DNA of 26,839 nt from an uncultured Blautia sp. (lineage in GTDB: Bacteria > Bacillota > Clostridia > Lachnospirales > Lachnospiraceae): positions 1 to 26,839 of the forward strand of contig CAKRTP010000011.1 in assembly GCA_934402155.1 (NCBI GenBank), read 5' to 3'. The translations under genes and the position numbers were made by a program. How positions within the stretch are numbered: the first letter of the stretch is position 1; each line of letters opens with the position of its first letter. Under the pieces are notes generated by a model. That model was not told the DNA's origin. It saw only the letters and a list, made by a program, of their open reading frames with translations, and did not search any database. This document shows positions 118 through 7,021 of the stretch, piece after piece.

Positions 118-145
118 TTGACTTCCGGTCATTTTTGACTATAAT
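118..145 (+). promoter_or_regulatory. Promoter of the TetR gene, overlapped by operator 3
   Basis: TTGACT (118-123) and a consensus TATAAT (140-145) are separated by 16 bp, giving a start near 152 and a leader of about 37 bases before the ATG at 189. The third operator copy (119-131, TGACT-N3-GGTCA, one mismatch from perfect) covers the -35 hexamer, which predicts autorepression. Confidence 0.6.
119..131. promoter_or_regulatory. TetR-type operator 3
   Basis: Third copy of the 13-bp inverted repeat with one arm mismatch (GGTCA for AGTCA). It sits on the -35 of the TetR promoter. A weaker match here than at the leftward promoter would be typical of an autoregulated repressor that binds its own promoter less tightly; this is inference. 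Confidence 0.55.
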
Positions 146-188
146 AAATCACAGAACCCAAAATCAGCAATCCAGAAAGGAGATTCGT

Positions 189-815
189 ATGGGAAAACTG
201 GAAATGAAAAAGCAAAAAAAGAAAGATGCCCTATTCAATACAGCCTTTGAGCTTTTTACCACAAAAGGGACCAACCAGACGACAATCTCTGACATTGTAA
301 ATAAAGCAGGCGTTGCCAAGGGTACTTTTTATCTCTATTTCAAAGATAAATATGATATTCGCAACAAACTTGTCTCTCATAAGACTTCAGAACTTTTTTA
401 TCAGGCCTACCGTACGATCATCGAACAGGAAATCACAGGTTTCAGAAGACAGCTTCACTTTATGATTGATTTTATTCTGGATGCACTCCAGAAGGACTCT
501 TCTCTGCTGGTCTTTATTTCCCGTAATCTTTCCTGGGGTGTTTTTCAGACCGCACTGGAAGATCAGATTCCGAATGAAGAACGTATCTTTTACGAAGCCT
601 ATCTGGAACTGCTCGAAAAAGATGAATGCACCTATGACCATCCTGACATGCTACTGTTTTCGGTCATCGAACTTGCAAGTTCCACCTGCTACAGCTGCAT
701 CCTTTACCAACAGCCCGTTTCACTTGACGAATACCTTCCATATCTTCATCGCTCGATTGACGGAATTCTTGACAGTTATACACATAACAAAGGAGCTTCC
801 GCACCAAATAATTAG
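189..815 (+). CDS. TetR/AcrR-family transcriptional regulator
   Basis: A 208-residue one-domain repressor of the usual TetR length. The N-terminal basic stretch is followed by a canonical TetR helix-turn-helix (about residues 30-60), with TISDIVNKAGVAKGTFYLYF showing the family's A-G-V-x-K-G-T-x-Y-x-Y-F signature. The remaining 150 residues are helical and should form the ligand pocket and dimer interface; they give no ligand clue. I chose the ATG at 189 because AAAGGAG sits six bases upstream; an in-frame TTG at 135 lies upstream of the predicted transcription start. Three matching operators lie directly upstream, so autoregulation plus control of a divergent gene outside the window is likely. 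It converges on the riboswitch operon and shares no promoter with it, so it is probably not that operon's regulator. Confidence 0.9.
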   Translation: MGKLEMKKQKKKDALFNTAFELFTTKGTNQTTISDIVNKAGVAKGTFYLYFKDKYDIRNKLVSHKTSELFYQAYRTIIEQEITGFRRQLHFMIDFILDALQKDSSLLVFISRNLSWGVFQTALEDQIPNEERIFYEAYLELLEKDECTYDHPDMLLFSVIELASSTCYSCILYQQPVSLDEYLPYLHRSIDGILDSYTHNKGASAPNN

Positions 816-824
816 TGCGGAAGC
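795..824. terminator. Hairpin between convergent genes
   Basis: A perfect 10-bp stem (GCTTCCGCAC at 795-804 with its complement at 815-824) encloses a 10-base loop and overlaps the last codons of the TetR gene. On the plus strand the T-rich tract follows only about 14 bases later; on the minus strand TTTGTT follows. It probably serves both converging genes but is not a textbook terminator in either direction. Confidence 0.5.
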
Positions 825-832
825 CCCTTATC

Positions 833-1936
833 TCAATTTGTTTTTAATTTTTTCATCCGTTCGGCTTCTTCTTTAAGAAGCTGATTTTTTTTGTTGGCAG
901 TTCCAAATGTATCAAGACAGCAGATTACTTCTCTGCATTTTTTCATACGATCATATGCTTTCTGATAAGTCTCTTCCGAAATTTCTTCAAACGGCTTTTC
1001 CACGATCACCTCTGCTGCCAGATCCCCTGCCACCTGATAATCCACATCATTTTCATGAAGAACTCCTGCTGCAAACGGGATGCCGGCTCTCTGCAGTCTT
1101 CTGTAGGTTGGAATTCCGCTTCCGTTTCCACCGATCACAAAAACTTCCGGCTCACCTTTTGGTGCCCCCATCTCCAGACAGCCAAATGCCGCATTGTAAC
1201 TTCCTGTCGTGATCCCATAAAGGTGATGAATATATTCGGAAGTAAAAATTTCTTCCGGCGGCCCATATTTTTCAATCCTGTCACCATGTACACAGATCAC
1301 TTTATCCGAAATCTTCTGTGCAAGATCCAGCTCATGAAGAGACATCAAAACTGCCGTCTGATTTTCCAGTACCATCTGTTTGAGAATAGAAAGCAGTTCC
1401 AGTTTATGTCGGATATCAAGGAAAGATGTCGGCTCATCCAGAACGATCACTTCCGGCTCCTGGCAGATTGCCCTTGCCAGCAGGATCCTCTGTCTCTGAC
1501 CATCACTGATCGCCGTGAAATCCCTGTCTTTAAATTCCATCGCATGAACCATTTTCATTGCTCTGTGAACCTTTTTCCAGTCCTCCTCTGACAAAATCCC
1601 CAGGGTTCCTGTATACGGATAACGACCTGTTGCCACAATATCCTCGCAGGTCATAAGCTCCGGCTGTATTCTTTCTGTCATCACAACGGCAAGCTTCTTT
1701 GCCACTTCTTTACCGGACATCTTACTCATTATTTCCTGATTCATGTAGACTGTTCCGGCCACAAGCTTCAGCTGTCTTGTCATACTTTTGAGGATGGTGG
1801 ATTTTCCTGCTCCATTCGGTCCGATCAATGTGAGGATCTCTCCTCGTTTCATCTTAATCTCTACATCTTTGATCAGAGGTTTGCCATCATAGCCGACCAC
1901 CATCTGATCTGTATGGATAAAATATTCTCCCATCAT
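833..1936 (-). CDS. ABC transporter ATPase (FecE/BtuD-like) with extra C-terminal domain
   Basis: Cytoplasmic ATPase of an iron-complex/cobalamin type importer, 367 residues. The Walker A motif GPNGAGKST is near residue 38. The signature reads ISDGQRQR rather than LSGGQ, and Walker B is VIVLDEPTSFLD, followed by the H-loop in MSLHELDLA. Family members are usually about 255-270 residues. Here about 110 extra residues follow (from about 255), starting with a hydrophobic strand and FVIGGNGSGIP, which looks like a Rossmann-type glycine-rich turn; its role is unknown. The start overlaps the permease stop as ATGA, so the two are translationally coupled. A second ATG follows directly, and either could be used. 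It is the last gene of the riboswitch-led operon. Substrate cannot be read from the ATPase itself. Confidence 0.9.
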   Translation of the reverse strand: MMGEYFIHTDQMVVGYDGKPLIKDVEIKMKRGEILTLIGPNGAGKSTILKSMTRQLKLVAGTVYMNQEIMSKMSGKEVAKKLAVVMTERIQPELMTCEDIVATGRYPYTGTLGILSEEDWKKVHRAMKMVHAMEFKDRDFTAISDGQRQRILLARAICQEPEVIVLDEPTSFLDIRHKLELLSILKQMVLENQTAVLMSLHELDLAQKISDKVICVHGDRIEKYGPPEEIFTSEYIHHLYGITTGSYNAAFGCLEMGAPKGEPEVFVIGGNGSGIPTYRRLQRAGIPFAAGVLHENDVDYQVAGDLAAEVIVEKPFEEISEETYQKAYDRMKKCREVICCLDTFGTANKKNQLLKEEAERMKKLKTN

Positions 1937-2949
1937 GCCCTCTTCTTTCTGTGAATCATAATGTAAATGACAATCGGTGCTCCAAACACAGCTGTTACGG
2001 AACTGATACTGAGTTCCGTCGGTGCAAATACAGTTCTCGCGATCAGATCACAGAAAAGACAGAACACCGCACCGCCAAGAAAACATGCCGGGATCACCAG
2101 GATCGGCTTTGATGTTTTGAGCAGACTTTTGACCAGATGCGGTACTGCAATTCCGACAAAGGAAATCGGTCCTGCAAATGCTGTTACACAAGCTGAGAGA
2201 ATACTTGAAAGCAGGATCAGCGCAATTCTGAATGCCTTGATATTGACACCCATATTCTGGGCATAGCCCTCTCCAAGCTGATAAGCTCCTATTGGTTTTG
2301 ACATAAGAAAAGTGATAATAAGTGCTGTCATAACCACGATCGTCATTGTAGAGACATTTTCCCAGGTTGTTCCTGAAAAACTTCCAAGTGACCAGTTATG
2401 AAGATTTACAATGTTTGAATCATCTGCAAAAGTTACCACAAAATCAGTCACAGCTGAACAGATATATCCTATCATGATCCCACTGATGACCAGCATGGAC
2501 ATCTGATTTACTTTCTTTGCGATCAGAAGTACAAACCCCATAGATATCATTGAGCCCGTAAAAGCAGCAATGATCATCATACCTGAAGTTGCAACCATGG
2601 ATTTGCCAAGAAGAAAAATCATGGTCAGTGCCACAATCAGTTTTGCTCCGGAAGAAATTCCAAGAACAAAAGGACCTGCGATCGGATTGCCAAAAAAAGT
2701 CTGCAGCAAAAAGCCCGAAACAGACAAAGCCCCTCCGAGGATGACTGCTGCCAGAATTCTCGGAAGACGTATCTCCCAGATGATATTATAGGATGTCTCC
2801 GTCCCATCTTTCAGAAAAAGAATCCGAAACACATCCTGCAGTGAAATCGAAATGCTTCCTGAATTGATATTCCAGAAGACCAGCACTCCAAGAAGTATGA
2901 TCAGTATTATAAATGACAGCCAGTATCTGAAATGTAGTTTCTTACGCAT
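1933..2949 (-). CDS. ABC transporter permease, FecCD/BtuC family
   Basis: Integral membrane subunit of an importer for iron-siderophore, heme or corrinoid compounds; 338 residues, the normal length for the family. It has about ten hydrophobic helices, beginning with residues 10-27. The family's conserved stretch IRLPRILAAVILGGALSVSG is followed by LQTFFGNPIAGPFVLGISSGA, and the late motif GPISFVGIAVPHLVK marks the ATPase-coupling region. Start ATG at 2949 is preceded by AAGGGG. The gene begins 10 bases after the binding-protein stop and overlaps the ATPase start by 4 bp. Only one permease gene is present, so a homodimer is expected, as in BtuC2D2. Confidence 0.92.
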   Translation of the reverse strand: MRKKLHFRYWLSFIILIILLGVLVFWNINSGSISISLQDVFRILFLKDGTETSYNIIWEIRLPRILAAVILGGALSVSGFLLQTFFGNPIAGPFVLGISSGAKLIVALTMIFLLGKSMVATSGMMIIAAFTGSMISMGFVLLIAKKVNQMSMLVISGIMIGYICSAVTDFVVTFADDSNIVNLHNWSLGSFSGTTWENVSTMTIVVMTALIITFLMSKPIGAYQLGEGYAQNMGVNIKAFRIALILLSSILSACVTAFAGPISFVGIAVPHLVKSLLKTSKPILVIPACFLGGAVFCLFCDLIARTVFAPTELSISSVTAVFGAPIVIYIMIHRKKRA

Positions 2950-2959
2950 ATTTTTCCCC

Positions 2960-4162
2960 TTATTTCAGTTTTTTCATGTAAGTAAGAGAATCCAGTTTTG
3001 GATCATCCGAAGTCAGCATCGTATGGATATCCTCGATCATAGTTGCCAGTCCCATCGTTTCCTGGAAAAGATTCTGTCCCGTACACCATACATTTCCATC
3101 CTTCACTGCCTTGAAATCAGCCAAAAGTGAACTTTTTGAAAGAAGTTCATCGATGGAACCCAGTTCTCCGTCGATCGTGCTGTTGTAGATGATATAATCT
3201 GCATCTTTTGCCTTTGCATAGAATTCTTCCATCTGCATGTTCATGGTGGAAAGTGCATTGTCGTCTTCTGCCGGATCATGGAAAATATACTCGCCCCCGG
3301 CAAGTTCGATCATTTTTGATACATAATCGTTAGATTTCCGTACATTCGCCGCACCCATGGAATTAATATAGAAGAAAGCCACTGTTTTTCCTGTATTTTC
3401 GCTGTCCTCTACAGATTTCAGCTTGTCCACCTGCTCCTGGAAAAGCTTTTGTGCCAGATCCTCTTTGCCGAGAAGAACTCCGTAAAGTTTGATCCATTCC
3501 GTTCTTCCGAGTGGATGACTCTCATAGCTGGAATGTTCTACCAGAACCGGAATTCCAAACTGTTCCAGTTTCTCCTGAACTTCCGGCTGATGATAGATCA
3601 TTGTTGATTCGATTGCAAGATCACAGTTCTTTGACAGGATCAGTTCATAATCCGGTGCACTGTACTTTCCTGCAAATGCGATATTACCGTCTTCCATCGC
3701 CTTTTTGGCCTTGTCAATATACCAGCCATCTGCATTTGTGCCGGAAAGGCTGATACTGTCCAATCCGTCCAGGGCACAGAAAAGGTCCATCGCCGACGTT
3801 GCAACCAGATAAATATTCTGCACAGGTTTCTGTATTACAGAAATGTCTGCATCAAGCCCCTCAGGTGCTTCTTTGCCTTCCGGAACAAGAAGGAACTGTC
3901 CTCCATCTGTAATTGTGATCAGTACATAATCTCCCTCATAATAATCTACTGCAAACTGATCTGCATACTGCAGTTCCAGACTGTGATCATATTTCAGACC
4001 GGCAAGATTCTGCTGAATTTCCCTGTCCTCAGCATTTATTGTTTCTTCCTGTGAACTTTCCGTCTGAACTTCTCCGCCAGCTGCTCCGACAACTGCCGGT
4101 GCATTCACAAGAAAAACGGCAGCTGTCAGAATACCCAGTATTTTATATAATTTCTTTTTCAT
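2960..4162 (-). CDS. ABC transporter substrate-binding protein (FecB/BtuF-like), secreted
   Basis: A 400-residue class III (helical backbone) solute-binding protein, likely delivering the substrate to the adjacent FecCD permease. Residues 1-28 form a signal peptide ending near VVGAAGG, followed by an acidic low-complexity stretch. The body carries the family's features, including a region around DLAIESTMIYHQPEVQEKL, the interlobe helix, and a C-terminal lobe with DYIIYNSTIDGELGS. Gram-positive binding proteins are normally lipoproteins, but no lipobox cysteine is present in the signal peptide and no LPxTG anchor is seen. The gene starts only 2 bases after the upstream stop with no strong ribosome site, so translation is probably coupled. 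The riboswitch context suggests a corrinoid, cobalt complex or other tetrapyrrole; this is inferred. Confidence 0.85.
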   Translation of the reverse strand: MKKKLYKILGILTAAVFLVNAPAVVGAAGGEVQTESSQEETINAEDREIQQNLAGLKYDHSLELQYADQFAVDYYEGDYVLITITDGGQFLLVPEGKEAPEGLDADISVIQKPVQNIYLVATSAMDLFCALDGLDSISLSGTNADGWYIDKAKKAMEDGNIAFAGKYSAPDYELILSKNCDLAIESTMIYHQPEVQEKLEQFGIPVLVEHSSYESHPLGRTEWIKLYGVLLGKEDLAQKLFQEQVDKLKSVEDSENTGKTVAFFYINSMGAANVRKSNDYVSKMIELAGGEYIFHDPAEDDNALSTMNMQMEEFYAKAKDADYIIYNSTIDGELGSIDELLSKSSLLADFKAVKDGNVWCTGQNLFQETMGLATMIEDIHTMLTSDDPKLDSLTYMKKLK

Positions 4163-4164
4163 CT

Positions 4165-5079
4165 TTATTTTTCTGCCTTTGCAATGCTTGCAGAATCAAA
4201 CTGCAAGGTGTATTCAATCTCATGAGGAGTACTCATTGCCACGGTATCTGCTGTGACAGGCATTTTGTAGTCAAATGCATCCACCGGAATCTCAAATGTA
4301 GAGTTTCCATCCTTGTTGACCGGCTCATATTTCTCATCATTTACAATCATATAATCGTAATTTGGACTGCTCCATACGATTGTTGCTGTGATCTTGCCAT
4401 CTTTGATCTCAAGGGCTGCCGGAGAATCTACGCTTGCCTTGCCGCTTCCGCCTTCCATGGCAACATCAGCTGTATACTCTCCGTCTTCAAGCTTCAGATC
4501 CTCGACTGTTTTTTTGTCCTCAGATGCTCCGGCTGCTTCTCCATCGGCTTCTTTCTGCGGATTGGTCACTTTTACTTTATGGTCATACCATTTATTTTTC
4601 TTTCCGATCAGAGCAACATTAAATTCCTCATCGATTGCCGGAACCGGAATATCAAATCCATAAACTTCTTCACTCATGCCATCACTGTAGGTAACGGTAT
4701 CAGTCGTAGGCTCAAGAAGTTCTGCACCATCTTTTTTTGCATCTTCTGCTGTTCCCACAAACAGATTAACAATGCTCTTTGAAACAAGGCTTACATGAAT
4801 GGTCATCTTGCCATCTTTCACAGTAAGTGTTCCCTTGCCGTCATTTGCCTCATTTACATGGAACATATTGCTGTCTGTATCAAATTCTGCACTGTAGATT
4901 CCATCTTCCAGAGCAGTGCTTTCTGTATCAGAATCCTTCTTGGTTTCTTCTGTGCCGGCCTCCTCTTTTGTGTCGGCTGTCTCGGTCTTTTCTTTGTCGG
5001 CTGCCATAACCGGACTAACTGTAGTAAGTACCATGGCACTGCTTAATACACATGCCATTAAAGCTAATGAACGTTTCAT
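4165..5079 (-). CDS. Secreted protein with two tandem beta-rich domains, possibly NEAT-like
   Basis: A 304-residue exported protein. A signal peptide ends near SPVMA (residues 22-26), followed by a Glu/Thr/Lys-rich linker to about residue 56. Two related domains follow. Domain 1 (57-175) opens LEDGIYSAEFD and closes KKNKWYDHKVKV; domain 2 (about 196-300) opens LEDGEYTADV and closes HEIEYTLQF. The opening DGxY, central VKDGKMT/IKDGKIT and late Tyr-rich strand resemble NEAT heme-binding domains, but the canonical S-x3-x-Y...Y-x3-Y heme motif is not clear, so this is tentative. The ATG at 5079 is used because AGGAGG lies 8 bases upstream; an upstream in-frame TTG is only 2 bases from it. No membrane or wall anchor is visible. 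It sits between the chelatase and the binding protein, so a ligand-capture or relay role is plausible. Confidence 0.7.
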   Translation of the reverse strand: MKRSLALMACVLSSAMVLTTVSPVMAADKEKTETADTKEEAGTEETKKDSDTESTALEDGIYSAEFDTDSNMFHVNEANDGKGTLTVKDGKMTIHVSLVSKSIVNLFVGTAEDAKKDGAELLEPTTDTVTYSDGMSEEVYGFDIPVPAIDEEFNVALIGKKNKWYDHKVKVTNPQKEADGEAAGASEDKKTVEDLKLEDGEYTADVAMEGGSGKASVDSPAALEIKDGKITATIVWSSPNYDYMIVNDEKYEPVNKDGNSTFEIPVDAFDYKMPVTADTVAMSTPHEIEYTLQFDSASIAKAEK

Positions 5080-5133
5080 TGTCAATTCCTCCTGTTTTCT
5101 TTCACTTCGTTTTGATAAAATCTTATTTATCCC

Positions 5134-5170
5134 AAAAACTGCCCGGAAAAGTTATAAACTTTCCGGGCAG
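5134..5170 (-). terminator. Intra-operon terminator after the chelatase gene
   Basis: On the minus strand a GC-rich stem (CTGCCCGGAAA, 5139-5149 with 5160-5170, extended by three pairs after one bulge) is followed by TTTTT and then GGG. It lies between the chelatase stop and the next gene of the same direction. It could attenuate expression so that the chelatase mRNA exceeds the transporter mRNA. Confidence 0.65.
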
Positions 5171-5206
5171 CTATTTACCTGTACACAGTCTGCATGCAAA
5201 TCATTC

Positions 5207-5224
5207 GTTACTGTGAACAGTTAC
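5207..5224. repeat. Dispersed palindromic repeat, copy a
   Basis: An 18-bp near-palindrome GTTACTGTGAACAGTTAC (one mismatched arm pair) immediately downstream of the chelatase stop. It belongs to the GTWACTGTTCA family seen at six other intergenic places in the window. This copy has no clear match to the ATGSATTTTGACC box found at three of them. Confidence 0.55.
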
Positions 5225-5237
5225 AGTCATTTTGTTA

Positions 5238-6584
5238 TTATTCTGCTGCTTCCTCTGTTGCTGCATCATCTGTTGTCTCTGCGGAAGCATCATCAGCAGC
5301 TGCTGCATCATCTGTAGCTTCTGCATCGTCTGTTGCATCACCATCCATAGCTGCCTTTGTATGAGCTACATAGAGATCCTCTACTGCCGGGATTCTTCCC
5401 AGTCCTTCGATCTGGCAGTCAATGCTGTCAAATGCTCCGGATGCCTCAAACTGGCTCTTCCAGGAATCCTCATCATCACCAGCCATATCGTTGTTTGCAT
5501 GATCACCTGCAACAACCATCAGCGGACGAAGAACAACTTTCTTATAACCAGCCTCTTTAACCTTATCGATAACTGCCTCACATGCTGTATCTTCCGGCTT
5601 ACCCTCAACGGTTCCGATAAATACGTTCTTGTATCCAAGGTCTTCCATCTGAGTCTGCATCTGATCATAAGTTACATTTGCAGTATGAGAAGTACCATGT
5701 CCCATGAATACAAATGCTGTTCCGTCTTCTGCTGCTGCATCTATGCTGTCAAATCCTGCTTCTTTTACTGCTGCATCAACAAGTGCCTCTGCAACTGCTT
5801 TCTTGTCATCGTTGATCACTGTAGCATCTTCTCCGACTTCACCAAGCATTGGCTCTGCGATTGCAACGGATTCAAATTTATCTTTATACTGATCGATTGC
5901 TTCTACCATCTCATCATATTCTGCTCCATGCATAAGATGTGTCGGCTGTACAACCAGGTTCTTAACTCCGTTGTCAACTGCACGCTGGAGTGCCTGATCC
6001 ATATTGTCAATTGCTTCGTCATCTCTTGCCTGTACGTGGTTGATGATGATCTGTGCTGTGAAAGCTCTTCTTACAGCCCAGTCCGGATAAGCTTTTGCCA
6101 GAGCATCTTCGATTCCCTTGATATCCTCTGCGCGGCTGTCATTGAAAGAAGTACCAAAGCTTACTACAAGAATTTCATTCTCACCGATCTCATCCTGATT
6201 GCGCGGATCGTCTTTAGAAGCATCCCCTGTATCACGTCCAAAATATTCCGGGCTTGCTTCTTCACCTTCTACCAGTTCTTTCTGTGCATCTGTCAGTGCA
6301 TCCCATGCTTCTTTGGCTGCCTTACAGTCTTCATCTGTTGTATCAGTTCTTTCCTGTACATAGATTTTATCGATCAGTGCTGCAACATTGTCTGCAGCTG
6401 CCTGGTCTTCATCAGATGCATCTGTAGTTTCTTCTGTATCTGCAGCTTCTTCTGTATCTGCAGCTGCCTCTGTTGCAGTGTCCTCTGCAGTATTGTCAGA
6501 TGCCATAACCCCTGCTGTTCCCATCATAGATACAGTTGTTACCGCTAACAGTGTTGCAAGTGCTTTTACAGTTTTGTTTTTCAT
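5238..6584 (-). CDS. cbiK: Exported CbiK-type (class II) chelatase
   Basis: A 448-residue protein related to the anaerobic sirohydrochlorin cobaltochelatase CbiK, which inserts Co2+ into sirohydrochlorin in early B12 synthesis. The fold starts at NEILVVSFGTSF (about 136). Residues matching the CbiK metal site are visible: Glu222 in HGAEYDEM, His296 in GHGTSH and His362 in AGDHANND. Unlike cytoplasmic CbiK (about 260 residues), it has a signal peptide (1-28, ending AGVMA), an acidic linker (30-62), a short helical segment with AWDALTDAQKELV (93-105), and an acidic Ala/Asp/Thr tail (415-448). Start ATG 6584 is preceded by AGGAGG. An exported form is known as CbiKP in Desulfovibrio. A chelatase outside the cytoplasm has no evident substrate supply, so metal or tetrapyrrole binding and scavenging is an alternative to catalysis. 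First gene after the cobalamin riboswitch. Confidence 0.85.
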   Translation of the reverse strand: MKNKTVKALATLLAVTTVSMMGTAGVMASDNTAEDTATEAAADTEEAADTEETTDASDEDQAAADNVAALIDKIYVQERTDTTDEDCKAAKEAWDALTDAQKELVEGEEASPEYFGRDTGDASKDDPRNQDEIGENEILVVSFGTSFNDSRAEDIKGIEDALAKAYPDWAVRRAFTAQIIINHVQARDDEAIDNMDQALQRAVDNGVKNLVVQPTHLMHGAEYDEMVEAIDQYKDKFESVAIAEPMLGEVGEDATVINDDKKAVAEALVDAAVKEAGFDSIDAAAEDGTAFVFMGHGTSHTANVTYDQMQTQMEDLGYKNVFIGTVEGKPEDTACEAVIDKVKEAGYKKVVLRPLMVVAGDHANNDMAGDDEDSWKSQFEASGAFDSIDCQIEGLGRIPAVEDLYVAHTKAAMDGDATDDAEATDDAAAADDASAETTDDAATEEAAE

Positions 6585-6711
6585 TGTTTCGTCCTCCTTT
6601 GACATAAACATTCCCGGCGACATTTTCTTGTCGGAATCTGTCGTCCTGATGTAGCTTTATATAAAATTATTCATCAGCTGATTCATACAGTACGAAAACA
6701 ATTCCACTCAA

Positions 6712-6735
6712 TAAAAAAAGCCCTTGCTAAAGGGT
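6712..6735 (-). terminator. Riboswitch expression-platform terminator
   Basis: On the minus strand a short stem CCCTT-TAGC-AAGGG (6721-6734) is followed by C and seven T residues. It lies between the riboswitch aptamer and the chelatase gene with no coding sequence in between, the position expected for a transcription-attenuating expression platform. Cobalamin binding would be expected to favour it. Confidence 0.7.
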
Positions 6736-6789
6736 AAGAGGTCTGTCGTATAGAGAAAGCGGTACAACCAATTACTCGTGATCTGGAAT

Positions 6790-6990
6790 CTATGTTCCCG
6801 TACCAGACAACAGGCAGGTTTCCTGACTTGCCAATCAACATATGCTTCTATCTTCCCGGTCTCCCAGTGATCATGCTTACGCATACAGAACCATACTCCC
6901 TGCTTACAGTGACGAGATCGTACAGGTTTCGCACCTGTTTCCCTTTTAACTTCTGATAAACTCATCAGCACCTGTTATCTTCTTTATTCA
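6790..6990 (-). promoter_or_regulatory. Cobalamin (AdoCbl-type) riboswitch
   Basis: On the minus strand this leader shows the conserved blocks of the cobalamin riboswitch in order. First comes a purine-rich AAAAGGGAA block followed by GGTGCGAAACC (the GGGAAnnnGGTGnAAnnCC core). Next is a CACTGTAA segment matching the conserved ACTGTAA region. At the 3' end is the B12 box AAGTCAGGAAACCTGCC (about 6813-6829). The element lies directly upstream of the chelatase gene and is followed by an intrinsic terminator, so cobalamin should switch transcription off. It supports assigning the downstream chelatase, secreted protein and ABC importer to B12-related metabolism. Exact 5' and 3' limits are approximate. 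Confidence 0.92.
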
Positions 6991-6994
6991 ATTT

Positions 6995-7021
6995 TTTATA
7001 CAGTACCATATTTTTTGACAA
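6995..7021 (-). promoter_or_regulatory. Promoter of the riboswitch operon
   Basis: On the minus strand TTGTCA (7016-7021) and TATAAA (6995-7000) flank a 15-bp spacer; the -10 is preceded by a TG. Transcription would start just upstream of the aptamer. The spacer is short, so the assignment is moderate. Confidence 0.4.

What the first reader, a model, noticed from the sequence alone, without database searches (positions are those of the whole stretch)
833..7021. Cobalamin-riboswitch operon with an exported chelatase, a two-domain secreted protein and an ABC importer
One B12-responsive leader controls a secreted CbiK-like protein, a secreted protein with two repeated beta-rich domains and a FecBCD/BtuFCD-like importer. 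CbiK normally works in the cytoplasm; here it carries a signal peptide and retains the metal-site residues (Glu222, His296, His362). Placed beside a possible hemophore-like protein, it suggests an extracellular capture or metal-exchange relay for corrinoid, cobalt or tetrapyrrole substrates. I know of no described pathway with exactly this set.
Basis: partly seen in the sequence, partly recalled or inferred. Interest (0 to 1): 0.75.

Follow-up and report, generated by a model that had tools for sequence, protein, structure and literature searches.

The report
Outside-the-cell cobalt loader for B12
A vitamin-B12-controlled gene set found in many gut bacteria appears to put cobalt into a B12 building block outside the cell and then import it, which may explain how bacteria that cannot make that building block still assemble B12.

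Summary
On the minus strand a cobalamin riboswitch (102 bits) precedes an exported CbiK-type chelatase, a secreted two-domain protein whose second domain has the NEAT fold, and a FecBCD/BtuFCD-type importer. The metal-site Glu is E327, not E222. Precedents exist (Desulfovibrio, Porphyromonas), but relatives sharpen the function.

Of 180 sampled genomes (family of a Lachnospiraceae bacterium) 48 carry an exported CbiK. In 41 newly fetched loci 38 have the riboswitch and 27 a nearby binding protein. Fusions follow the order CbiK, domain 1, domain 2, binding protein (CbiK with domain 1 in 17, domain 2 with binding protein in 10), with two exceptions.

Where the only CbiK is exported, CbiD is present in 40 of 40 genomes but HemC in 9 of 40, against 66 of 70 tested genomes with a cytosolic CbiK. 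Ten of 14 examined in depth lack HemC, 9 of them also CobA, yet keep post-cobalt genes. Best reading: cobalt enters a sirohydrochlorin-level tetrapyrrole outside the cell, which is imported for cobamide synthesis: a candidate uptake route for tetrapyrrole-precursor salvagers. No biochemistry was done; 6 of those 10 lack CbiL and 14 of 41 loci lack a nearby binding protein, both unexplained.

The parts
6796..6990 (-). Cobalamin riboswitch aptamer RF00174
   Evidence: 102.1 bits, E 8.7e-25, full model 1-189
6713..6734 (-). terminator-like hairpin with T run after the aptamer (putative expression platform)
   Evidence: sequence, fold; function inferred
5238..6584 (-). exported CbiK-type class II chelatase, 448 aa: signal-peptide-like N-terminus, spacer, CbiK domain, acidic low-complexity tail
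   Evidence: PF06180 251 bits; PDB sequence matches FetB 9b86, CbiK 1qgo, 2xvx; H296/E327/H362 invariant in 75 of 75 exported domains
5134..5170 (-). strong hairpin with T run between chelatase and two-domain gene (possible attenuator)
   Evidence: sequence, fold
4165..5079 (-). secreted two-domain protein, 304 aa; in the numbering of the 298-aa query that starts at 5061: domain 1 about 54-170 (beta sandwich), domain 2 about 190-294 (NEAT fold)
2960..4162 (-). class III substrate-binding protein, 400 aa, no lipobox Cys in this lineage
   Evidence: PF01497 118.7 bits; AlphaFold2 pLDDT 85; Foldseek to heme, B12 and siderophore binding proteins alike
1933..2949 (-). FecCD/BtuC-type permease, 338 aa
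   Evidence: PF01032 267.7 bits; best NCBIfam model BtuC, below its cut-off
833..1936 (-). ABC ATPase, 367 aa, with about 120-residue C-terminal extension
   Evidence: PF00005 104.5 bits; best NCBIfam model is a corrinoid ATPase over residues 6-360, below its cut-off
786..832 (-). terminator-like hairpin after the ATPase gene
   Evidence: fold

Best explanation
The operon encodes an outside-in cobalt-loading and uptake system for a corrin precursor. When cobamide is low the riboswitch lets the operon be read. The exported CbiK inserts Co2+ into a metal-free tetrapyrrole at the sirohydrochlorin (factor II) level outside the membrane. Domain 1 of the two-domain protein takes the product from CbiK, domain 2 (NEAT fold) passes it to the substrate-binding protein, and the FecCD-type permease with its ATPase imports it for the remaining corrin enzymes. 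In about three quarters of the tested relatives that have only an exported CbiK (31 of 40) HemC is missing, so the macrocycle must come from other organisms; relatives with HemC may load their own exported molecule or add to their own synthesis. Shown: gene content, order, fusions, riboswitch, export-type N-termini, conserved chelatase site, absence of upstream genes by profile search. Inferred: substrate, metal, direction of the relay, and that the window's own organism uses it in the same way.
For: (1) Conserved unit: 80 of 80 named loci carry a riboswitch upstream (69 by motif pattern; 11 by Rfam), with domain 1 near CbiK in 80, SBP in 64, permease in 63, ATPase in 65. In a 41-locus sample: riboswitch 38, domain 1 in 39, lipobox-like pattern in 40. 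(2) Fusions, by locus: CbiK with domain 1 in 17 of 41 and 14 of 80; domain 2 with SBP in 10 of 41 and 18 of 80; CbiK with SBP in none. (3) Pathway: exported-only genomes have CbiD in 40 of 40 and HemC in 9 of 40; exported plus cytosolic: CbiD 32 of 32, HemC 32 of 32; cytosolic only: CbiD 20 of 20, HemC 34 of 38 tested; no CbiK: CbiD 2 of 19, HemC 3 of 19 tested. Fisher p 4e-15 for 9 of 40 against 66 of 70 (no correction for kinship). (4) Of 14 exported-only genomes studied, none has a CbiX match outside CbiK; 10 lack HemC, and 9 of these also lack CobA by elimination among methylases. (5) In 12 of 14 the exported CbiK, importer and corrin genes lie in one run on one strand; in 11 of 14 its riboswitch is the only one found. 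(6) Metal triad invariant in 75 of 75 exported domains. [quoted passage not shown] 180 tetrapyrrole-precursor salvager species are described (PMC6461909).
Against: Six of the 10 HemC-negative genomes examined also lack CbiL at E 1e-20, so Co-sirohydrochlorin alone would not serve them; they would need factor III or an unknown enzyme. In 14 of 41 sampled loci no SBP gene lies nearby although more than 10 kb remained downstream; 7 of these are exported-only genomes, and I did not look for the importer elsewhere in them. Domain 1 is not matched by Pfam NEAT and resembles domain 2 only weakly. The SBP fold does not separate heme, B12 and siderophore binders. NCBIfam's CbiK equivalog cut-off is not reached (200.7 of 400 bits; a cytosolic CbiK in L021 also fails at 245). 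Nine of 40 exported-only genomes do have HemC. No genome is held for the window; near Blautia relatives mostly have HemC and a cytosolic CbiK as well, so there the system would be supplementary. Genomes are not independent samples, and the CbiK tree is too weakly resolved to correct for kinship (2 supported pairs, p 0.5).
Confidence: 0.5

Rival explanations
1. A corrinoid (cobalamin, cobinamide or cobyrinate) importer of the BtuFCD kind, with the exported CbiK and NEAT-type protein serving as extracellular corrinoid-binding helpers that no longer chelate metal.
For: Cobalamin riboswitch; permease and ATPase closest to corrinoid models; BtuF among SBP fold matches.
Against: Metal triad invariant in 75 of 75 exported domains. 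HemC-negative exported-only genomes keep CbiD in 31 of 31 and, in the operons read, CbiC, F, G, H, J/ET and A, which an importer of finished corrinoids would make useless.
Confidence: 0.21
2. A heme or iron acquisition system: the exported CbiK binds heme or removes its iron, as discussed for P. gingivalis FetB/IhtB, and the NEAT-type protein is a hemophore.
For: Best PDB sequence match of the CbiK is heme-binding protein FetB; NEAT fold; the SBP profile hits only Lmo2184 in the PDB (recalled to be a heme-uptake protein) and fold matches include many heme binders.
Against: Cobalamin riboswitch control and position at the head of corrin operons; residue 224 is Asp where the D. vulgaris heme ligand His96 lies (alignment; ligand recalled); neither domain shows the YxxxY heme motif (motif recalled).
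Confidence: 0.13
3. A cobalt scavenger: the exported CbiK holds Co2+ and hands it as a metal ion or small complex to the importer; no tetrapyrrole crosses the membrane.
For: Strong CbiM matches in short frames (257-290 aa) were found only in 3 of 31 genomes, all with a cytosolic CbiK; exported-only G014 and G022 have only weak short ones (25-31 bits).
Against: FecCD/BtuC importers carry large chelates (established knowledge); does not explain the NEAT fold or the loss of HemC and CobA.
Confidence: 0.07
4. Corrin synthesis in exported-only genomes uses an unrecognised cytosolic chelatase and front end, and the exported CbiK is incidental.
For: Absence rests on profile searches; Met8/CysG-type enzymes can insert metals (established knowledge) and a strong PF13241 match is present in 6 of the 14 exported-only genomes.
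Against: HemC and CobA are absent also in the one-contig chromosome G014, and I know of no common substitutes; the exported CbiK sits in the corrin operon itself.
Confidence: 0.09

Closest known systems
Desulfovibrio cbiK-cbiL/btuCDF B12-element operon and periplasmic CbiK(P)
   Same: One B12 element over cbiK-cbiL and a BtuCDF importer (PMC545781, passages); a CbiK-fold chelatase outside the cytoplasm (2xvx matched; that it is the periplasmic D. vulgaris enzyme is recalled).
   Different: Heme ligand His96 (recalled) not conserved here; the delta-proteobacteria studied have nearly complete de novo gene sets (PMC545781). I know of no NEAT-type partner there, but did not search.
Porphyromonas gingivalis FetB/IhtB
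   Same: Best PDB sequence match, 9b86; discussed as chelatase or reverse ferrochelatase (PMC13402209 and PMC13227078, passages); P. gingivalis also lacks the steps to precorrin-2 (PMC6461909, passage).
   Different: Discussed for heme and Mn-protoporphyrin in the passages seen, not cobamide; Gram-negative with an outer-membrane receptor (recalled).
Isd-type NEAT hemophore relays
   Same: NEAT fold of domain 2; proposed stepwise hand-over to a FecBCD-type importer.
   Different: Control by cobalamin; no sequence match of the two-domain protein to solved NEAT chains; canonical YxxxY absent.
Tetrapyrrole-precursor salvagers (Shelton et al. 2018)
   Same: Upstream genes missing, corrin ring genes kept (PMC6461909, section 13 read).
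   Different: In the passages and section read, no uptake system is named for them; here a specific one is proposed.

Membership tests
CbiK class II cobaltochelatase | CbiK profile over full length | tested here: met
   PF06180 251.4 bits, positions 3-261 of 262
CbiK class II cobaltochelatase | catalytic His145/His207 and metal Glu175 (Salmonella) | tested here: met
   H296, H362, E327 by alignment; 75 of 75 exported domains
CbiK class II cobaltochelatase | NCBIfam equivalog NF047852 cut-off | tested here: not met
   200.7 of 400 bits; a cytosolic CbiK (L021) also fails, 245 bits
CbiK class II cobaltochelatase | cytoplasmic location | tested here: not met
   signal-peptide-like N-terminus by eye; lipobox-like pattern in 56 of 80 and 40 of 41 relatives; location itself not measured
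CbiK class II cobaltochelatase | inserts Co2+ into sirohydrochlorin | not testable with these tools
   needs enzyme assay
NEAT domain (domain 2) | Pfam PF05031 gathering score | tested here: inconclusive
   32.0 against 32.8 bits; most of the 120 listed homologues carry precomputed PF05031 (capped list)
NEAT domain (domain 2) | NEAT beta-sandwich fold | tested here: met
NEAT domain (domain 2) | YxxxY heme-ligand motif (recalled) | tested here: not met
   HxxxY (H280, Y284 of the 298-aa query), invariant in the 17-sequence alignment
NEAT domain (domain 1) | Pfam match or fold | tested here: inconclusive
   no PF05031 match over domain 1 in the CbiK fusions scanned; Foldseek aligns both domains to IsdH N2N3 with low TM-score; weak hhalign match to domain 2
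BtuFCD/FecBCD importer | PF01497 + PF01032 + PF00005 | tested here: met
BtuFCD/FecBCD importer | BtuC and corrinoid-ATPase equivalog cut-offs | tested here: not met
   210 of 334 and 224 of 537 bits
BtuFCD/FecBCD importer | imports cobalamin or cobinamide | not testable with these tools
   needs uptake assay
Cobalamin riboswitch | RF00174 gathering score | tested here: met
   102.1 against 31.5 bits
Tetrapyrrole-precursor salvager | upstream genes absent, corrin ring genes present | tested here: inconclusive
   met in relatives: HemC absent in 31 of 40 exported-only genomes, CbiD in 40 of 40; not testable for the window's own genome

The most novel reading that the evidence does not exclude
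Sirohydrochlorin as a cobaltophore and shared currency: tetrapyrrole makers export the metal-free macrocycle, an exported CbiK charges it with cobalt outside the cell, and both makers and non-makers import Co-sirohydrochlorin, so that one step of corrin synthesis is extracellular. Support: four genomes (G012, G016, G025, G027; loci titled Pseudobutyrivibrio and Dorea) have HemC, CbiL and CbiD but only the exported CbiK and no separate CbiX. In G027 an ABC-2 transporter pair lies between CbiL and HemC, CobA/HemD, riboswitch and exported CbiK. This ABC-2 permease was seen in 8 genomes, all HemC-positive (7 of 32 with both CbiK forms, 1 of 9 exported-only with HemC), and in none of the 31 HemC-negative ones, within the stretches fetched.
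Probability: 0.22. Interest if true: 0.92.

Novelty: new variant of a known kind. Interest (0 to 1): 0.8.

Why it matters
Many gut bacteria keep the corrin-ring enzymes of vitamin B12 synthesis but lack the genes for the tetrapyrrole that these enzymes need; [quoted passage not shown] This operon is a concrete, widespread and testable candidate. If right, cobalt insertion, treated as a cytosolic step, happens outside the cell in part of the Lachnospiraceae, B12-precursor exchange in the gut has a molecular carrier, and genome-based B12 predictions that accept any CbiK need revision. It also suggests a second look at P. gingivalis FetB/IhtB.

Tried and rejected
Own genome: none held, so nothing is claimed about the window organism's pathway. 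A reading as a heme system was weighed and lowered (see rivals). CbiM as a marker of conventional cobalt uptake was not clean: 12 of 31 genomes match PF01891 with 14 matches, of which 8 are strong in frames of 333-356 aa that look NikMN-like (my judgement), 3 are strong and short (257-290 aa) and 3 are weak (24-31 bits), so no statistic is built on it. PF13241 was used as a marker of precorrin-2 dehydrogenase; weak matches (under 40 bits) were set aside, leaving strong ones in 6 of 14; in G018 the match lies in one 456-aa frame with a methylase, i.e. CysG-like. Methylases were named by operon position and frame length, not by a model for each. Structure of the SBP did not discriminate ligands. 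The CbiK tree (quick method, with long-branch warnings) separates exported and cytosolic forms by one branch with SH-aLRT 100 but is too weak inside for a kinship-corrected test. PDB sequence searches with the two-domain protein or its alignment found nothing relevant. Literature searches for CbiK with cobalamin riboswitch and signal peptide, for NEAT domain with Lachnospiraceae and for 'cobaltophore' returned 0 papers; in the wider searches no listed title or start of abstract describes this system; only openly licensed PMC papers are covered. One paper asked for is not held.

Class definition: exported = PF06180 match of about 820 nt or more in a frame of about 400 aa or more; G072 (852 nt, 293 aa) was put with cytosolic-only and not tested further. 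Sample of 180: 30 exported-only, 18 both, 60 cytosolic-only, 72 without CbiK. HemC was tested in 38 of the 60 and 19 of the 72, CbiD in 20 of the 60 and 19 of the 72. The 40 exported-only genomes are 26 from the sample plus 14 from 31 genomes I chose out of 80 named loci (4 of those 14 are also in the sample). The 41 sampled loci are the 48 exported-CbiK genomes less 7 already held. In the first HemC call G132 was left out by oversight and added.


Full report
WHAT IS THERE. The finding is real and lies on the minus strand. A full-length cobalamin riboswitch aptamer (6990-6796, 102.1 bits) is followed by a terminator-like hairpin (about 6734-6713) and then by five genes: exported CbiK (6584-5238, 448 aa), a two-domain secreted protein (5079-4165, 304 aa), a substrate-binding protein (SBP, 4162-2960), a FecCD permease (2949-1933) and an ABC ATPase with a C-terminal extension (1936-833). 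The permease and ATPase are closest to corrinoid-transport models but below their equivalog cut-offs. The two-domain gene to the ATPase gene are nearly contiguous; a strong hairpin with a T run separates CbiK from them, and a terminator-like hairpin follows the ATPase gene.

THE CHELATASE. It matches PF06180 over full length. The three PDB sequence matches are heme-binding protein FetB (9b86), Salmonella CbiK (1qgo) and a putative chelatase (2xvx, recalled to be the periplasmic D. vulgaris CbiK). Salmonella His145, Glu175 and His207 correspond to H296, E327 and H362; these are invariant in 75 of 75 exported domains aligned. The two His are the catalytic ones (PMC7689651, passages). Glu222 is invariant too but is a different residue. 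Exported forms share features that cytosolic ones lack: H183 in 75 of 75, H219 in 70 of 75 exported domains (2 of 26 cytosolic ones have His at 219), and about 22 extra residues in several loops. In a quick tree of 101 domains one branch with SH-aLRT 100 separates exported from cytosolic forms; the program warned of long branches. Export is by a plain signal-peptide-like N-terminus in the Blautia type; a lipobox-like pattern is found in 56 of 80 named and 40 of 41 sampled loci (pattern only, no predictor).

CONSERVATION. A scan of one genome per species found 285 relatives of the exported CbiK; the best 80 were kept, titled mostly as Lachnospiraceae, Blautia, Butyrivibrio, Pseudobutyrivibrio and unclassified Clostridia, with one Gemmiger formicilis. 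All 80 have a riboswitch upstream (69 by motif pattern; 11 by Rfam) and domain 1 in reach; SBP in 64, permease in 63, ATPase in 65. Of the 16 without an SBP nearby, 8 had under 8 kb of sequence left and 8 had over 9 kb. A less selected set came from 180 genomes that the tool drew from the family of G014, a Lachnospiraceae bacterium by title: 48 have an exported CbiK, and the 41 not already held were fetched. Of these, 38 have the riboswitch (L165 and L175 show none in the stretch, L172 starts at a contig end), 39 have domain 1, 27 SBP, 25 permease, 27 ATPase; all 14 without an SBP had more than 10 kb left downstream, so there the importer is not adjacent.

FUSIONS. By locus, CbiK is fused to domain 1 in 17 of 41 and 14 of 80, domain 2 to SBP in 10 of 41 and 18 of 80, the two domains alone together in 11 of 41 and 44 of 80, and CbiK to SBP in none. 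Longer fusions keep the same order: CbiK-domain 1-domain 2 (L024, L065, L074, L140) and domain 1-domain 2-SBP (7 of 80; L157). Two loci break it: L141 (domain 1-SBP) and L171 (domain 1-CbiK). The simplest reading is a relay CbiK, domain 1, domain 2, SBP, permease.

LINK TO THE CORRIN PATHWAY. In 31 genomes reached through named loci, CbiD is present in 31 and each has a riboswitch upstream of the exported CbiK. Seventeen also have a cytosolic CbiK; 14 have only the exported one. No CbiX match lies outside CbiK genes in the 31. In 12 of these 14 the exported CbiK, importer and corrin and nucleotide-loop genes form one run on one strand (gene names for G014 by NCBIfam); in 11 of 14 no other cobalamin riboswitch was found (at most 58 candidates per genome were scored).

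THE DECISIVE COMPARISON. HemC, needed to make the tetrapyrrole ring, is present in 9 of 40 exported-only genomes, in 32 of 32 with both forms and in 34 of 38 tested cytosolic-only genomes. CbiD is present in 40 of 40, 32 of 32 and 20 of 20 tested. Without any CbiK, CbiD is in 2 of 19 and HemC in 3 of 19 tested. So the exported-only genomes keep ring-contraction genes but mostly lack the means to make the substrate. Among the 14 studied in depth, 9 of the 10 HemC-negative ones also lack CobA (by elimination); the tenth, G018, has a CysG-like protein. Eight of the 10 lack a strong precorrin-2 dehydrogenase match. The pathway is thus cut around the step catalysed by CbiK: 4 of the 10 keep CbiL and would start from Co-sirohydrochlorin; 6 lack CbiL and would have to start from Co-factor III or use an unknown enzyme. 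One of the latter, G014, is a single-contig chromosome (Lachnospiraceae bacterium GAM79, L028), so fragmentary assembly does not explain the absences there.

MODEL. The exported CbiK loads cobalt outside the cell into a macrocycle released by other organisms; the NEAT-type protein and SBP carry it to the importer; the cytosolic enzymes complete the corrin. That metal-free factors II and III are released by cobalt-starved producers is recalled and not checked. In HemC-positive exported-only genomes the cell's own macrocycle would have to leave and return. An ABC-2 transporter pair beside CbiL, HemC, CobA/HemD and the exported CbiK in G027, seen in 8 HemC-positive genomes and in none of the 31 HemC-negative ones within the fetched stretches, is a candidate exporter. 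This is the boldest reading and is kept as the novel case.

LIMITS. Nothing here shows substrate or chemistry. The window's genome is not held; near Blautia relatives mostly have the cytosolic CbiK and HemC as well (Blautia glucerasea, L011/G031, is an exception), so in the window the system may only supplement synthesis. Absence is by profile search. Genomes share ancestry and the available tree cannot correct for it: on supported branches only 2 independent pairs exist, on average 1.8 in the expected direction, p 0.5. Classes rest on match length.

PRECEDENT AND NOVELTY. Desulfovibrio has a B12 element over cbiK-cbiL and btuCDF (PMC545781, passages). P. gingivalis FetB/IhtB is a relative discussed for heme and Mn-porphyrin, and P. 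gingivalis too lacks the steps to precorrin-2 (PMC6461909, passage). Tetrapyrrole-precursor salvagers were defined in 2018 (PMC6461909, section 13 read); a 2019 survey speaks of precorrin-2 auxotrophs and calls transport of B12 and its precursors an open problem (PMC6593275, passages). I found no paper that links an exported CbiK, a NEAT-type carrier and an importer to this salvage (searches; titles and starts of abstracts, open-licence PMC only). Hence: new variant of a known kind, built from known families, with a proposed role that would answer an open question.

Noticed in passing
G009, G014, G018, G020, G021, G022: Six genomes with CbiD and other ring genes but no CbiL match at E 1e-20; either they import a C20-methylated precursor or use an unrecognised methylase.
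   Followed up: partly
L101-L103 (G027 contig C2): One cluster holds an importer, most corrin genes, CbiL, an ABC-2 transporter pair, HemC, CobA/HemD and exported CbiK, with the riboswitch at C2:91791-91996.
   Followed up: partly
P0121, P0122, P0123; L174: Long CbiK proteins (752-761 aa; P0122 aligned as two CbiK units) and a 934-aa CbiK-domain 1-CbiK protein.
   Followed up: no
L016:3355-6375 and L005:14266-19053: Very large proteins (1006 and 1595 aa) inserted in the cassette with no Pfam match; profile matches to the two-domain protein or SBP.
   Followed up: no
L155:2125-2252, L018:8611-8778: A Clostridiales-1 RNA (RF01699) lies between the cobalamin riboswitch and the first gene of the cassette.
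   Followed up: no
window 5134-5170: Strong hairpin with a T run between the chelatase and the two-domain gene, a possible attenuator setting their ratio.
   Followed up: no
window 2960-4162: The substrate-binding protein of a presumed monoderm lacks a lipobox Cys; so do the Blautia-type homologues, while several other lineages have one. How it is held at the membrane is unclear.
   Followed up: partly
window 135-815: TetR-family regulator gene converging on the operon; a similar-looking gene follows the cassette in L001 (15676-16299).
   Followed up: no
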